Notes: generated by a model not told the origin, from the letters alone. A stretch of DNA of 64,000 nt from Nostocales cyanobacterium HT-58-2 (GCA_002163975.1 CP019636.1:7071501-7135500), one strand, 5' to 3'; shown: positions 13,084 through 18,672, numbered from the stretch's first letter. Translations and numbers: made by a program.

Positions 13084-13328
13084 TCTCGTTGATGAGTCTT
13101 CAGAATTCGTGGACGAGTATCAGAACCTTGTTGACGAGTCTTTGGAACTCATCCACGAGTTCTTAATACTCGTGGATAAGTCTTAGAAACTGGTGAATGA
13201 GTCTTAGAAACTCGTCAACGAGTATTAAAGCCTCGCAGCCGAGTCTTAGAAACTCGTGGACGAGTGTTGAAAACTCAAAGACGAGTCTCAGAACTTGATG
13301 AACGAGTGTTGAAAACTTGTGAACGAGT
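13084..13328. repeat. Degenerate 21-bp tandem repeat, about 12 units
   Basis: About 12 consecutive units of roughly 21 bp, each with a palindromic core of the type CTCGTGGACGAG followed by TCTTAGAAA. Units differ by several bases each. The 21-bp period yields heptad-like peptides in several frames, but no frame has a convincing start and context, so I treat it as non-coding. Its right edge runs into the MITE-like palindrome at 13329. Confidence 0.75.
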
Positions 13329-13438
13329 CTGATACTAAGTTGCATTCAAAAACCTCACCCCGCCCTCCGGGCACCCCTCTCCTTAGCAAGGAGAGGGGCG
13401 GGGGTGAGGTGACACCTATGAACGCAACTCAGTATGAG
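13329..13438. mobile_element. MITE-like palindromic element (110 bp)
   Basis: Terminal arms CTGATACTAAGTTGCATTCA (13329-13348) and TGAACGCAACTCAGTATGAG (13419-13438) are inverted repeats matching at about 16 of 20 positions. Inside are further nested arms (ACCTCACCCC / GGGGTGAGGT) and a perfect core hairpin CCCCTCTCCTT / AAGGAGAGGGG. No coding capacity and no clear target duplication. Probably a non-autonomous element or REP-like sequence. Confidence 0.65.
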
Positions 13439-13691: not shown

Positions 13692-14309
13692 ATGATAGAT
13701 AGTCAAGAATTACTTACAAATCTCTACAACGTCTTTAACCCTTTTGAACCCTTACCCGCTGGTGACCCAAAGTATGTAGATTGTCAAGACGTACGGGGAG
13801 ATGCGGATATTCTCCAAGAGTTAGGAAATCGCATACAAAGATCAAATAGCAGTACTTGCCAATTGTATTCTGGGCATCGGGGAGCAGGGAAATCCACAGA
13901 ACTACTGAAGTTAAAGCAATATCTAGAAAATCGGAAATTCTATGTCGTTTACTTTGCCGCAGATGAAGAGGATATTGACTCAGAAGATGCCCAATATACA
14001 GATATACTCCTCGCCTGTACCCGTCGATTGCTTCAAGATTTACACAAAATTGCCAATCCTCAACCAATATTAAATTGGCTCAAAGAACGCTGGCAAGATG
14101 TGAAAGATTTGGCGCAGACTCCGATGGAATTTGAAAGCCTGGAAGTAGAAACACAACTTTCGCAGTTTGCCAAGTTGACAGCTAATTTAAGAGCGGTTCC
14201 CGAATTAAGACAACAAATTCGCCAAAAAGTCAATCCCCACACTGTCATACCAATTCTGTATGAAGATGCGCCAAACTGCGTCAAACTTATAGATGGGTGC
14301 ATTGAGTAA
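13692..14309 (+). pseudogene. P-loop ATPase, N-terminal fragment (split by IS630 element)
   Basis: The N-terminal part of an AAA/STAND-like ATPase, with Walker A GHRGAGKST at residues 61-69 and YVVYFAADEEDID after it. True homology ends at about 14246. The last 20 or so codons, to the stop at 14309, are read from the inserted IS. The C-terminal part resumes at 15384. Removing 1137 bp (the IS plus one 2-bp duplication) joins the halves in frame (GTC ATC ACC) to give a 442-residue protein. The ATG at 13692 is preferred over TTG 13683. The family is otherwise unnamed to me. Confidence 0.8.
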
Positions 14310-14811
14310 TTTTGTTATGAGTCGTCCATTCCAAATCGAGATTTCAGAAAGTCAAGAAGAATTGGAGAAAGCTCTCAAACATGCCACAGCAGCAAGCAGC
14401 AAAGAAAGATTGCAAATGCTCTACTGGCTCAAGAGTGGTCAAGTCAGCAGCAGGCGATCGCTGGCAGAACGTTTAGGGCGTGATGAAGCAACCATAACTC
14501 GTTGGGTGAGAAAGTATAAAGATGAAGGACGAAGGGGCTTACTTGAAGTAAAACATGCACCAGGGAAAGTTCTGAGCATAAGTGGTTCAGACTTAGAACG
14601 GTTGAAACAGAAGTTGCAGGAACCATCTGGGTTTCAAAGCTATAGTCAAATTCAACAATGGCTCAAGAGCGAATTAGGACTTTCACTTGCCTACAAAACA
14701 GTCTATGAAATTGTTCGCAAGCGTTTGGGTGCGAAATTGAAAGTGCCTCGTCCTCAAAGCACCAAACAACACCCAGAAAGCCTATCTCACTTTAAAAAAA
14801 ACTGCCTCTAG
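14293..14811 (+). CDS. IS630-family transposase, ORF A (DNA-binding part)
   Basis: 172 residues with two helix-turn-helix regions: SRRSLAERLGRDEATITRW (about 53-71), and SYSQIQQWLKSELGLSLAY further on, the paired-domain-like DNA-binding half of Tc1/mariner-IS630 transposases. An internal ATG at 14317 (MSRPFQ) is an alternative start. The ORF ends shortly after TTTAAAAAAAAC, where A AAA AAC is a classical -1 frameshift heptamer that would fuse it to ORF B. Confidence 0.88.
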   Translation: MGALSNFVMSRPFQIEISESQEELEKALKHATAASSKERLQMLYWLKSGQVSSRRSLAERLGRDEATITRWVRKYKDEGRRGLLEVKHAPGKVLSISGSDLERLKQKLQEPSGFQSYSQIQQWLKSELGLSLAYKTVYEIVRKRLGAKLKVPRPQSTKQHPESLSHFKKNCL

Positions 14812-14822
14812 CATTCAAATTC

Positions 14823-15374
14823 TTGCAGGAAGAGTTTGGAGAGGGTAAACGATTGAGGTACTTGTGCCAGGATGAAACACGTTTAGGATTAAAGACAATT
14901 GCAGGACGTTTAATTACGGCTAAAGGAGTTAAACCCGTGGGTTTAAGCCAATGGCAACGTGAAAATTTTTATTTATACGGAGTCGTAGAACCCCTAAGTG
15001 GATACAGCTTTTTCTATGAGTTCCCCTACCTCAATAGTGATTGTTTTCAAAACTTTTTGGAGTTGCTCTCTGCTGACCTTGGTGATGATATCGCGGTTAT
15101 CCAGTTCGACCAAGGGTCTTTTCACAAAGCGAAAGCTCTCGATTATCCAGATAACATTATCCCTATTTTTCAACCTCCTCACTCTCCTCAACTCAACCCA
15201 ATTGAGCGGTTTTGGGAATTTCTCAAATCTCAACTCCAATGGGAAAATTGTCAAACCCTCACACAACTACAGCAGAAGTTAACTGATGTCCTCAAAGCAA
15301 TTACACCTTCCATGATTTCCTCTCTCACTTCTTACGACTTTATTCTTGAAGCTTTATTTAGCGCAGCTTTATAA
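14823..15374 (+). CDS. IS630-family transposase, ORF B (DDE catalytic part)
   Basis: 183 residues carrying the catalytic triad: Asp in CQDETRLG, Asp in VIQFDQGSFH, and Glu in NPIERFWEFLK. The frame is -1 relative to ORF A and is open back to about 14785, overlapping the A-rich slippery site, so the natural product is probably a fused protein of about 360 residues. The TTG at 14823 is only a nominal start. Confidence 0.88.
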   Translation: MQEEFGEGKRLRYLCQDETRLGLKTIAGRLITAKGVKPVGLSQWQRENFYLYGVVEPLSGYSFFYEFPYLNSDCFQNFLELLSADLGDDIAVIQFDQGSFHKAKALDYPDNIIPIFQPPHSPQLNPIERFWEFLKSQLQWENCQTLTQLQQKLTDVLKAITPSMISSLTSYDFILEALFSAAL

Positions 15375-15383
15375 AGAAATGGT

Positions 15384-16157
15384 ATCACCTTAATTAAAGT
15401 CTTGAATGAGTTTCTGGCAGATGCAAAAAAGCACCTACCCACTGGCTACACGCAACTAGCGGTCATTGTAGACAACTTAGACCGGATGGTGTTAGTCAAA
15501 GATGGCGATCGCACCAATTATGAAGAAGTCTTTTTAGACCGCAGTGAACAACTCCAAGCCTTGGATTGCCATTTAATTTACACCGTCCCCATTTCAATGT
15601 TGTATTCTACGAGGACAACAGACCTCCGAGATATCTACGGCGACCTGCAAATTTTGCCAATGATTATGGTCAGAACTCGTACAGGAGAAATTTACGATCC
15701 AGGACTGAAGAAAGTAAAAGAAGTGATTCGCAAGCGAGTCCGGCAAATTGAACAAGAACTTTCACTAGAAAATGGAATTTTTGATAGTCCCAATACTTTG
15801 GAAAGACTGTGTTTGATGAGTGGAGGTCATGTCAGGAATTTGCTATTGTTAACTCAAGATGCCATTGGACGTACTGAAGAATTACCAATTACTGAAAAAG
15901 CAGTACGACGAGCAATTACTCAAGCCAGAGATACCTATCGCCGTGCTGTAGAAAATCATCAATGGAGTCTATTAGCCGAAGTCTCTCTTTCTAAACGCAT
16001 CATCAATGATGACCAGTATCGAAGCTTGATGTATAACCGTTGTCTTTTAGAATACCGCTACTTAGATGATGATGGAGAGATGCAGCGTTGGTATGATATT
16101 CATCCACTGATTCAAGGAATTCCAGAATTTAAAGAAGCTGTGGCAAAACTTCTATGA
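15384..16157 (+). pseudogene. P-loop ATPase, C-terminal fragment (after the IS630 element)
   Basis: Continues the ATPase in frame from ACC TTA ATT AAA GTC TTG. The first usable start is TTG 15402, giving 251 residues. It contains a Walker B-like strand (LAVIVDNLDRM), a sensor-like segment, and a helical C-terminal region (HVRNLLLLTQDAIGRT) typical of STAND/AAA lid modules. Its TGA stop overlaps the ATG of the TPR gene (ATGA), so the two were translationally coupled. If made from the TTG it would lack the nucleotide-binding P-loop. Confidence 0.8.
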
Positions 16158-18025
16158 ATCCAGATTTAACTGATTGGGATGAAGATTTACTTCCTGAACC
16201 AGAAGAAGCTTATCAAGACTTGGTTCGCGCACTGAAGCGGAAATCAGGATTTGGCTTATTTTTTGTCCAATGTACACCAACGGAAGCAGATCGATTGATT
16301 GCCAAACTTCCACAAGATATCCCGCACAAAAAGGTTGCAGCACTACGTTTGGTTGAAGCAATTGATAACTTATATGCACGAGTTGCTGAGTTTGTTGAAA
16401 ACAAGCAAGTTGATGTTTTATTGATTAAAGGTCTGGAATATTCCTTATATAAGTATGAACAAAGAACTTTTGGCGAAATTACAGAGGGGCAATTTAGCAA
16501 TTTAACCCGTGTTCCACCAATTTTAAATCATTTAAACCAACAGCGAGAAAGGTTTAGAGATGATTTCCCAATTTGTTTTGTCTTTCTCTTACGGTCATTT
16601 TCCATCAATTATCTCATTCACCGCGCCCCAGATTTTTTTGATTGGCGTTCTGGGGTATTTGAATTACCGACAACACCAGCAGTAGTAGAGCAAGAATCAA
16701 TTCGTTTACTACATGAAGCAGACTCTAAGGAATATTTAACACTGACTAATGAAAAAAAGATAGAGAAAGTGTTAGAAATTCAAGACCTTTTGGCTGAAAA
16801 ACATCAGACAGAAAGTCGAAAGGCTAGCTTACTATGTGAACTGGGATGGTTGTTAGTTACTGCTGAGGAATACGAAGCAGCACTCACATCCTACGACCAA
16901 GCATTGAAGATTCAACCAGACTACCACAATGCTTGGTACCATAAAGGCTTTGCGCTGAGAGATTTAAAATGCTATGAAGAAGCGATAGCTTGCCACGAAC
17001 AAGCACTGAAGATTCAACCAGACTACCACAATGCTTGGTACGGTAAAGGCATTACGCTGAGAGATTTAAAATGCTATGAAGAAGCGATAGCTTGCCACGA
17101 ACAAGCACTGAAGATTCAACCAGACTACCACAATGCTTGGTACGGTAAAGGCATTACGCTGAGAGATTTAAAACACTACGAAGAAGCGATAGCTTGCCAC
17201 GAACAAGCATTGAAGATTCAACCAGAATTCCACTATGCTTGGTACGGTAAAGGCAATGCCCTGAGTGATTTAAAACACTACGAAGAAGCGATAGCTTGCT
17301 ACGACCAAGCACTGAAAATTCAACCAGAATTCCACTATGCTTGGAACGGTAAAGGCAATGCCCTGAGTGATTTAAAACACTACGAAGAAGCGATAGCTTG
17401 CTACGACCAAGCACTGAAAATTCAACCAGAATTCCACTATGCTTGGAACGGTAAAGGCAATGCCCTGAGTGATTTAAAACACTACGAAGAAGCGATAGCT
17501 TGCTACGACCAAGCACTGAAAATTCAACCAGAATTCCACTATGCTTGGAACAACAAAGGCAATGCCCTGAGTGATTTAAAACACTACGAAGAAGCGATAG
17601 CTTGCTACGACCAAGCACTGAAAATTCAACCAGAATTCCACTATGCTTGGAACAACAAAGGCAATGCCCTGAGTGATTTAAAACGCTACGAAGAAGCGAT
17701 AGCTTGCTACGACCAAGCACTGAAAATTCAACCAGAATTCCACTATGCTTGGAACAACAAAGGCAATGCCTTGAAGGATTTAAAACGCTATGAAGAAGCG
17801 ATAGCTTGCTACGACCAAGCACTGAAAATTCAACCAGACTTCCACTATGCTTGGTACAACAAAGCTTGCTGCTATGCTCTTCAAGGTAATATTGAGCAAG
17901 CAATTGAAAACCTCGACAAAGCACTTCATCTAAATCCAAATGAATGTCGAGAATGGGCAAAAACTAATTCAGATTTTGACAGTATTCGGGAAGATGAGCG
18001 GTTTCAAGTGTTGATGAAAGAATAG
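16154..18025 (+). CDS. TPR-repeat protein with degenerate NTPase-like N-terminus
   Basis: 623 residues. Residues 1-200 resemble a P-loop NTPase that has lost Walker A: FFVQCTPTEADRLIAKLP occupies the expected site, and VLLIKGLE resembles Walker B. From residue 240 there are eleven 34-residue TPR units in phase (102-bp DNA units starting at 16871). Units 2-10 are almost identical, e.g. YEEAIACYDQALKIQP. TPRs usually bind proteins. The 4-base ATGA overlap with the upstream ATPase means the two were made together and probably form a complex. With the ATPase split, translation of this gene may be reduced. Confidence 0.85.
   Translation: MNPDLTDWDEDLLPEPEEAYQDLVRALKRKSGFGLFFVQCTPTEADRLIAKLPQDIPHKKVAALRLVEAIDNLYARVAEFVENKQVDVLLIKGLEYSLYKYEQRTFGEITEGQFSNLTRVPPILNHLNQQRERFRDDFPICFVFLLRSFSINYLIHRAPDFFDWRSGVFELPTTPAVVEQESIRLLHEADSKEYLTLTNEKKIEKVLEIQDLLAEKHQTESRKASLLCELGWLLVTAEEYEAALTSYDQALKIQPDYHNAWYHKGFALRDLKCYEEAIACHEQALKIQPDYHNAWYGKGITLRDLKCYEEAIACHEQALKIQPDYHNAWYGKGITLRDLKHYEEAIACHEQALKIQPEFHYAWYGKGNALSDLKHYEEAIACYDQALKIQPEFHYAWNGKGNALSDLKHYEEAIACYDQALKIQPEFHYAWNGKGNALSDLKHYEEAIACYDQALKIQPEFHYAWNNKGNALSDLKHYEEAIACYDQALKIQPEFHYAWNNKGNALSDLKRYEEAIACYDQALKIQPEFHYAWNNKGNALKDLKRYEEAIACYDQALKIQPDFHYAWYNKACCYALQGNIEQAIENLDKALHLNPNECREWAKTNSDFDSIREDERFQVLMKE
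16871..17992 (+). repeat. 102-bp tandem repeats within the TPR gene
   Basis: Eleven consecutive 102-bp units, each coding one TPR. Units 5 to 9 differ by only a few bases. Such near-identity at DNA level implies recent duplication or gene conversion, and unit number is likely to vary between strains. Confidence 0.9.
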
Positions 18026-18125: not shown

Positions 18126-18377
18126 GTGTCAGGAACAATTAACATTGAGCAAGCAGTATTAGATAATCTGCGGACACTCCCAAATGAAAAACAACAGGAA
18201 GTACTAGATTTTGTCGAATTTTTAGTGCAAAAATCAGGAAAGCCAAGGCAAGGGAGCAGCGAAGCTTCAGACCAACAAAAAGCAAGAGAAACTGGGAATA
18301 TCCGTAGCCATGATGCATTTTTGAAAGGTTACGCACCAGAAGACGAAGGATTATATGACGACTATCCAACCGGGTGA
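18126..18377 (+). CDS. DUF2281-type antitoxin
   Basis: 83 residues, GTG start with GGGAG upstream. The N-terminal region (IEQAVLDNLRTLPNEKQQEVLDFVEFLVQK) is typical of DUF2281 antitoxins, which neutralise MazF/PemK-like toxins in cyanobacteria. The C-terminal part is charged and probably wraps the toxin. The 3' end overlaps the start of the toxin frame at 18355 by 23 bases. The partner toxin is broken (see next entry), so this antitoxin may now be an orphan. Confidence 0.8.
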   Translation: MSGTINIEQAVLDNLRTLPNEKQQEVLDFVEFLVQKSGKPRQGSSEASDQQKARETGNIRSHDAFLKGYAPEDEGLYDDYPTG

Positions 18378-18672
18378 ATTTTAGGTAGCAGATATTCCAT
18401 TCACAAGTGGTGGCGATTCTAAAAAGCGCCCAGTACTCATATTGTGGTTGGATGGAGATGATGTTGTCACAGCAGTAGTCACATCTGCCAAACCACGCAC
18501 CCAAACAGATGTATCGCTTAATGATTGGGCTGTAAGTGGTCTGCGTGTTGCTTCAACTGTTCGTCTGTCTCGACTAGACTGTCTAGAAAAATCTTTGTTG
18601 CTTGCAAAAATTGGGGAAATTGCCGAATTCAGATGCAAATCAGTTAAAACAAGTTTGGAATATGCATATTAA
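18355..18672 (+). pseudogene. PemK/MazF-like toxin with amber stop at codon 10
   Basis: The frame starts ATG ACG ACT ATC CAA CCG GGT GAA TTT, then TAG (18382-18384), then continues open to TAA at 18670 with a full PemK/MazF-like sequence: VADIPFTSGG, KKRPVLILWLDGDDVV, AVVTSAKPR, GLRVASTVRLSRL. Relatives have Trp or a similar residue where TAG stands (TGG to TAG is one substitution). Without readthrough only nine residues are made. A restart at TTG 18442 would lose the conserved KKRP strand. Overlap with the antitoxin end is normal for this pair. Confidence 0.8.

What the first reader, a model, noticed from the sequence alone, without database searches (positions are those of the whole stretch)
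13692..18025. ATPase-TPR pair: a two-gene module with an active and a degenerate NTPase
The upstream gene encodes an ATPase with an intact Walker A (GHRGAGKST). The downstream gene, overlapping by ATGA, encodes a protein whose N-terminal domain looks NTPase-like but lacks Walker A and is fused to eleven TPRs. Overlap implies equal and coupled production. An active ATPase plus a degenerate paralogue with repeats is a common plan for sensing or defence complexes (STAND-like), but I know no described system with this exact pair. A toxin-antitoxin pair lies directly downstream.
Basis: partly seen in the sequence, partly recalled or inferred. Interest (0 to 1): 0.62.

Follow-up and report, generated by a model that had tools for sequence, protein, structure and literature searches.

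The report
Cyanobacterial active/dead AAA+ ATPase sensor pair
Two neighbouring cyanobacterial genes, one for a working AAA+/STAND-type ATPase and one for a partner whose own ATPase domain is dead and carries a changeable repeat array, form a conserved and apparently unnamed two-gene module, although in this particular genome the ATPase gene is cut in two by an insertion sequence.

Summary
The TPR gene (16154-18025), its eleven TPRs, the ATGA overlap and the Walker A are real. But the ATPase gene is split by an IS630-like element (14248-15384, TCA target duplication), so the module is probably dead in this genome; the downstream toxin gene also carries an early in-frame stop. In relatives the pair is real and widespread. 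In 80 named cyanobacterial loci the ATPase adjoins the TPR gene in 78, with an exact 4-bp overlap in 55. Walker A is present in 123/123 ATPases and in 0/148 partner N-domains. Predicted structures show the ATPase as an ORC/Cdc6-STAND-type AAA+ protein (Z about 15) and the partner N-domain as a degenerate AAA+ fold (Z about 10-11). Distant paralogues pair the same ATPase with degenerate-domain-nSTAND1-WD40 or NACHT-HEAT proteins, and one ATPase is fused to TIR. The same cofG-hflX slot holds two deep module lineages, swapped at least five times. Best reading: a STAND-like active/inactive sensor pair resembling nSTAND2 in plan, probably a conflict-type system; a defence role is inferred, not shown.

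The parts
13692..14247 (+). 5' part of the ATPase gene (Walker A GHRGAGKST); in-frame ORF runs on to 14309 inside the IS
   Evidence: 90% identical to intact ATPase of L031
14245..14247 (.). TCA target-site duplication, left copy
14248..15384 (+). IS630-like insertion sequence (ends TACC...GGTA; transposase in two ORFs 14293-14811 and 14823-15374)
   Evidence: Pfam HTH_32/HTH_33 and DDE_3; 13 identical copies; ends from flanks of 8 copies
15385..15387 (.). TCA target-site duplication, right copy
15388..16157 (+). 3' part of the ATPase gene (Walker B VIVDNLDRM, sensor-2-like SGGHVRNLL, winged-helix-like C-terminus)
16154..18025 (+). TPR gene: inactive-AAA+ domain plus TPR array, 623 aa
16154..16714 (+). 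degenerate AAA+ domain (residues 1-187), no Walker A
   Evidence: AlphaFold2 model pLDDT 77.8, pTM 0.73; AAA+ matches Z 10-11
16823..17944 (+). eleven 34-residue TPR units (residues 224-597), neighbouring units 93% identical in DNA on average, up to 100%
18126..18377 (+). DUF2281 (antitoxin-type) gene, associated but not a constant part
18355..18672 (+). PemK/MazF-like toxin frame with an in-frame stop at codon 10

Best explanation
A two-gene AAA+/STAND signalling module. Gene 1 makes an active AAA+ ATPase of the ORC/Cdc6-STAND-TnsC type. Gene 2 makes a protein whose N-terminal AAA+ domain has lost nucleotide binding and serves as a docking subunit, carrying a variable sensor or adaptor arm (TPR array here; TPR linker + nSTAND1 + WD40, or NACHT + HEAT, in paralogues). 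Steps shown: gene pairing, intact versus lost Walker motifs, predicted folds, interchangeable C-terminal arms, occupation of one chromosomal slot by two deep module lineages. Steps inferred: that the two AAA+ domains form a mixed ring or stack (a basic residue at the arginine-finger position of the dead domain would act on the ATPase's nucleotide), that the TPR groove binds a ligand (perhaps an invader or stress protein), that binding changes the ATPase state and triggers a response, and that the setting is conflict or immunity. In this genome the module is broken by a recent insertion.
For: ATPase next to the degenerate-domain gene in 78 of 80 named loci, 55 with exactly 4-bp overlap, and in nearly all distant paralogous loci. 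Walker A 123/123 and DNLD 116/123 in ATPases; Walker A 0/148 in partners; basic residue at position 156/157 (end of the helix before the last core strand, the usual AAA+ arginine-finger place) in 130/133. Structures: ATPase pLDDT 84.9, Z 15.4 ORC, 15.2 TnsC, 14.8 NRC4 resistosome, 13.9 CED-4; partner domain Z 10.8 TnsC, 10.3 Sir3 AAA+ domain, 10.2 ORC. Partner arms: TPR, nSTAND1+WD40, NACHT+HEAT; ATPase-TIR fusion L158. Evolutionary distances of the two genes go together, r=0.95, also after allowing for CofG. Same cofG-hflX slot holds two deep lineages, at least 5 changes, AU p=0.003 against one clade. TPR groove positions are the most variable, P=0.00025.
Against: No direct evidence for a complex, for ATP hydrolysis or for phage defence. 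Conserved synteny (cofG-hflX slot in 41 of 80 named loci) and presence in most Nostocaceae argue for a stable chromosomal function rather than a mobile defence island; not found in phages and almost absent from plasmids. Groove-position variability is a general feature of TPRs. The slot pattern could also come from old tandem paralogues lost differently. No sequence similarity between the two AAA+ domains. TIR fusion seen once.
Confidence: 0.5

Rival explanations
1. Housekeeping or developmental regulator: the pair is an AAA+ remodelling machine with a TPR client adaptor, used in filamentous cyanobacteria for a normal cellular process, not for conflict.
For: Vertical-looking conserved slot between cofG and hflX in many Nostocales genera; ATPase family in 181 of 291 genomes of the order; close relatives found by the scan are all cyanobacterial among the 80 listed; not found in phages.
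Against: Repeated change of deep module lineage in the same slot, frequent inactivation of the ATPase (about 9 cases), nSTAND1/NACHT/TIR company and several paralogues per genome are unusual for housekeeping genes.
Confidence: 0.3
2. DNA-related AAA+ machine: the ATPase works like TnsC or ORC/Cdc6 on DNA, with the TPR protein as target selector.
For: Top structural matches include TnsC and ORC/Cdc6; winged-helix-like C-terminus in the model.
Against: STAND proteins (NRC4, CED-4, SSO1545) match nearly as well; no transposition or replication gene recurs beside the pair; the IS inside it is an unrelated repeated element.
Confidence: 0.08
3. No functional pairing in the sense claimed: adjacent genes of one operon acting separately, and in this genome simply a pseudogene next to a TPR gene.
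For: ATPase split here by an IS with the TPR gene left intact; other genomes also have a broken ATPase beside an intact TPR gene.
Against: Adjacency kept across two deep clades and many paralogous families with new arms; correlated divergence r=0.95.
Confidence: 0.12

Closest known systems
nSTAND2 two-gene system (Kaur, Iyer, Burroughs, Aravind 2021, PMC8195603, Fig. 6C)
   Same: Two-gene operon; both proteins built on a STAND/AAA+ module, one active, one with eroded NTP motifs; the inactive one carries a variable module; predicted hetero-multimer with arginine fingers in both.
   Different: nSTAND2 arms are mostly GT4 or HEPN and the operon is called mobile; here arms are TPR, nSTAND1-WD40 or NACHT-HEAT, and the module is chromosomal and mostly in a fixed slot. 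Sequence kinship with nSTAND2 could not be tested (no model or accession in the tools).
iSTAND / iSTAND2 MoxR-vWA ternary systems (PMC7159879, PMC8195603)
   Same: Catalytically dead STAND domain as a conserved sensor component working with an active AAA+ ATPase; common in multicellular cyanobacteria.
   Different: No recurrent MoxR or vWA gene beside this pair; the active ATPase here is ORC/STAND-like, not MoxR; no iSTAND profile match.
Classical STAND NTPases with TPR or WD40 arms (AP-ATPase, NACHT, Avs-like)
   Same: NTPase switch plus superstructure-forming repeats.
   Different: Switch and repeat arm lie on two proteins, and the arm carries its own dead AAA+ domain.
MNS clade, Npun2340/2341 family (named in PMC8195603 after Leipe et al. 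2004)
   Same: STAND family whose name points to two adjacent Nostoc punctiforme genes (reading of the name, from memory).
   Different: The original paper is not in the library, so identity or difference could not be checked; the ATPase could already have been placed there.
P-loop ATPase, Sll1717 family (NF047389); PADLOC candidate PDC-S20
   Same: Weak profile similarity of the ATPase (E=1.8e-4 and 2.6e-5).
   Different: Far below the NCBIfam cut-off (20.8 of 75 bits); partial coverage.

Membership tests
AAA+/STAND-type P-loop ATPase (gene 1) | Walker A GxxGxGK[ST] and hhhhD Walker B | tested here: met
   Walker A 123/123, DNLD or DDLD in 119/123 full-length relatives
AAA+/STAND-type P-loop ATPase (gene 1) | AAA+ core with helical lid and winged helix | tested here: met
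   Predicted model only (pLDDT 84.9); Z 15.4 to ORC over 247 residues, 14.8 to NRC4 over 290, 13.9 to CED-4 over 285
AAA+/STAND-type P-loop ATPase (gene 1) | Above the curated cut-off of a named family model | tested here: not met
   AAA_16, ATPase_2, nSTAND_NTPase5 and Sll1717 below cut-off for the window's clade
AAA+/STAND-type P-loop ATPase (gene 1) | Intact gene in the window's genome | tested here: not met
   Split by an IS at 14248-15384
Inactive AAA+/STAND domain (N-terminus of gene 2) | AAA+ fold | tested here: met
   Model pLDDT 77.8; the listed VIA matches are AAA+ proteins, Z 9.6-10.8; moderate confidence
Inactive AAA+/STAND domain (N-terminus of gene 2) | Loss of Walker A | tested here: met
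   0 of 148 have it
nSTAND2 two-gene system | Operon of one active and one inactive STAND protein | tested here: met
nSTAND2 two-gene system | Conserved arginine finger in both proteins | tested here: inconclusive
   Basic residue at the expected place in 130/133 partners; function not tested
nSTAND2 two-gene system | GT4 or HEPN effector on the inactive protein (commonest arms) | tested here: not met
   None among the partner proteins scanned
nSTAND2 two-gene system | Sequence membership in the nSTAND2 family | not testable with these tools
   No nSTAND2 profile or accession available
iSTAND ternary system | Neighbouring MoxR ATPase and vWA protein | tested here: not met
   No such gene recognised among the neighbour clusters recurring in 4 or more of 80 loci
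MNS clade Npun2340/2341 | Sequence identity with the named family | not testable with these tools
   Defining paper not held
Type II toxin-antitoxin pair (downstream) | Antitoxin and intact toxin | tested here: not met
   DUF2281 present; toxin frame has a stop at codon 10

The most novel reading that the evidence does not exclude
A large, so far unnamed family of cyanobacterial split-STAND sensors: a constant active ATPase works with interchangeable partners that all carry the same dead AAA+ docking domain, so that one switch can be fitted with many sensor arms (recombining TPR arrays, nSTAND1-WD40 receptors, NACHT-HEAT), and whole modules are exchanged at fixed chromosomal slots as immune alleles are.
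Probability: 0.4. Interest if true: 0.7.

Novelty: new variant of a known kind. Interest (0 to 1): 0.52.

Why it matters
The dead domain has no family in Pfam, NCBIfam or PADLOC, yet it was found in 73 of 386 sampled cyanobacterial genomes and its ATPase partner in 78 of 373, often in several copies. If it works as proposed it is a two-protein version of an NLR: the nucleotide switch and the repeat sensor are separate, and the dead AAA+ domain is the interface. That gives a direct, testable handle on how pseudo-ATPases control active ones, and on what the abundant TPR and WD40 STAND proteins of filamentous cyanobacteria do.

Tried and rejected
Profile-profile comparison of the two domains, with small and larger alignments, gave nothing, so 'paralogue' is not claimed from sequence. 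Sequence searches against solved structures gave no relative. Phage records hold no relative of the ATPase C-terminal half; plasmid records hold one distant WD-40 protein; one IMG/VR contig holds a TPR-type partner without an ATPase within the DNA fetched. PADLOC gives only weak, partial hits. A constant link to toxin-antitoxin genes was rejected: 18 of 59 loci. A complex could not be modelled: the tool folds single chains. An effector-associated-domain reading of the tail of the ATPase-TIR fusion (L158) is from memory; Pfam gave no match at E 0.01. iSTAND and nSTAND2 kinship is not excluded by the absence of profile hits.

Full report
What is in the window. The ATPase, however, is not one gene. 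Between 14248 and 15384 lies an insertion sequence with an IS630-type transposase in two ORFs, present in 13 identical copies in this genome. Flanks of eight copies give ends TACC...GGTA and a 3-bp target duplication (TCA here); intact relatives read CACACTGTCACC straight through at that point. The ORF from 13692 therefore ends inside the IS at 14309, and the rest of the ATPase, with Walker B and the C-terminal domain, is a separate frame from 15388. A whole-genome profile search finds only these two halves of this ATPase family in the genome. A second, distant module at G000:C1:1386902 (L126) is also decayed: the degenerate domain and nSTAND1 pieces are there, no ATPase. In this genome the module is most likely dead or dying.

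The pair is real elsewhere. Twenty loci from the same family all hold the ATPase (about 441 aa when whole) beside the TPR gene. A scan of genomes of 84,980 species found 221 relatives; the 80 listed are all cyanobacterial by record title. In 78 of these 80 the ATPase adjoins the TPR gene (the other two have little sequence upstream of the gene), 55 times with exactly 4 bp of overlap. Some loci carry an extra copy of the N-domain alone (about 180-222 aa) behind the ATPase and the TPR version in front of it. The N-domain was found in 73 of 386 and the ATPase in 78 of 373 genomes sampled across the phylum, and the ATPase in 181 of 291 genomes of the order.

A wider family. Iterated profiles on 60 loci show that distant ATPase paralogues also stand next to proteins with a recognisable version of the same N-domain. 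Their arms differ: TPRs of several types, a TPR-like linker followed by nSTAND1 and WD40 propellers (930-2000 aa proteins), or NACHT plus HEAT. One locus (L158) has an ATPase, a second ATPase fused to a TIR domain, and a partner with two N-domains and nSTAND1. Walker A is present in 123 of 123 full-length ATPases and in none of 148 N-domains; 130 of 133 N-domains have a basic residue at the place where AAA+ proteins carry the arginine finger (the reading of that place is inference from the model's strand and helix order).

Folds. The N-domain model (54 sequences, pLDDT 77.8, pTM 0.73) has the strand-helix order of a AAA+ core; the best structural matches are AAA+ proteins (TnsC Z 10.8 over 142 residues, Sir3 AAA+ domain 10.3, ORC 10.2). 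The ATPase model, made from the intact Scytonema relative (L166, 40 sequences, pLDDT 84.9), matches ORC/Cdc6 (15.4), TnsC (15.2), the NRC4 resistosome (14.8), archaeal SSO1545 (14.6) and CED-4 (13.9) about equally. So 'active AAA+/STAND protein plus dead AAA+ partner' holds at the level of predicted structure. By sequence profile the two domains show no kinship.

Evolution. Distances of ATPase and N-domain go together (r 0.95, 0.95 after allowing for CofG). In 41 of 80 named loci, as in the window, the module sits beside cofG (upstream) and/or hflX (downstream); in seven or eight Nostoc-type loci it sits between htpG and clpB. The gene names cofG and hflX are read from sequence and general knowledge. 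The N-domain tree has two deep clades, and both occupy the cofG-hflX slot. On the CofG tree, Nostoc strains with a clade-1 module (about 50% identical to the window's) nest among strains with clade-2 modules (about 80%); module type changes at least five times and a single clade of clade-1 carriers is rejected (AU p 0.003). So modules are exchanged, or old paralogues are lost differently, at a fixed address. The ATPase is frequently broken while the partner stays open. TPR arrays differ in unit number between relatives and neighbouring units are up to 100% identical in DNA; over 201 distinct units the positions that face the ligand groove are more variable than other non-signature positions (P 0.00025; the choice of groove positions is from memory, and such variability is usual for TPRs, so this is weak evidence).

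Interpretation. The most economical reading is a split STAND switch: an active ATPase, and a partner that docks through a dead AAA+ domain and brings a sensor arm. Nucleotide-driven assembly, ligand sensing and a conflict role are inferred from company (nSTAND1, NACHT, TIR), plan and slot swapping. The closest described plan is nSTAND2 of Kaur et al. 2021 (PMC8195603), also a two-gene operon of one active and one dead STAND protein with changing effectors; the iSTAND ternary systems (PMC7159879) share the dead-sensor idea but need MoxR and vWA genes, which do not recur here. [quoted passage not shown] The main rival is a housekeeping or developmental AAA+ adaptor machine, favoured by the stable chromosomal slot and broad presence in Nostocales.

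Downstream genes. The antitoxin-type DUF2281 gene (18126-18377) is intact; the PemK/MazF-like toxin frame stops at codon 10. DUF2281 or UPF0175 genes follow the module within 900 bp in 18 of 59 loci: passengers of the slot, not parts of the module.

Noticed in passing
G000:C1:1386902-1387375 (L126:4650-7520, minus strand): Second, distant module remnant in the same genome: degenerate AAA+ domain and nSTAND1 fragments broken up by a repeat, with no ATPase nearby.
   Followed up: partly
14248-15384 and 12 further copies: IS630-type transposase in two ORFs, but the copies examined show 3-bp duplications (TTA, TCA, TAA, ATT) with ends TACC...GGTA, not the plain TA expected from memory for IS630.
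   Followed up: partly
13085-13330: Degenerate 21-nt tandem repeat (about CTCGTTGACGAGTCTTCAGAAC) between cofG and the ATPase; similar arrays, read as small ORFs, stand upstream of the ATPase in up to 17 related loci.
   Followed up: partly
13338-13430 and L126:5943-6668: Interspersed hairpin repeat (CCTCACCCCGCCCTCCGGGCACCCCTCTCC...) upstream of the ATPase, also seen inside the decayed second module.
   Followed up: no
L158:3370-10670: ATPase, then an ATPase fused to TIR_2, then a partner with two degenerate AAA+ domains and nSTAND1: the clearest conflict-type member.
   Followed up: partly
L246:4989-5969 (IMG/VR contig): A partner protein (326 aa, 44% identical in the N-domain) on a contig classed as viral, with no ATPase within the 10.6 kb fetched; could be a decoy or a misclassified contig.
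   Followed up: partly
L040, L041, L049, L208, L211, L212, L236: Standalone copies of the degenerate domain (about 180-222 aa) directly behind the ATPase; in most of these loci a TPR version also stands in front of it.
   Followed up: no
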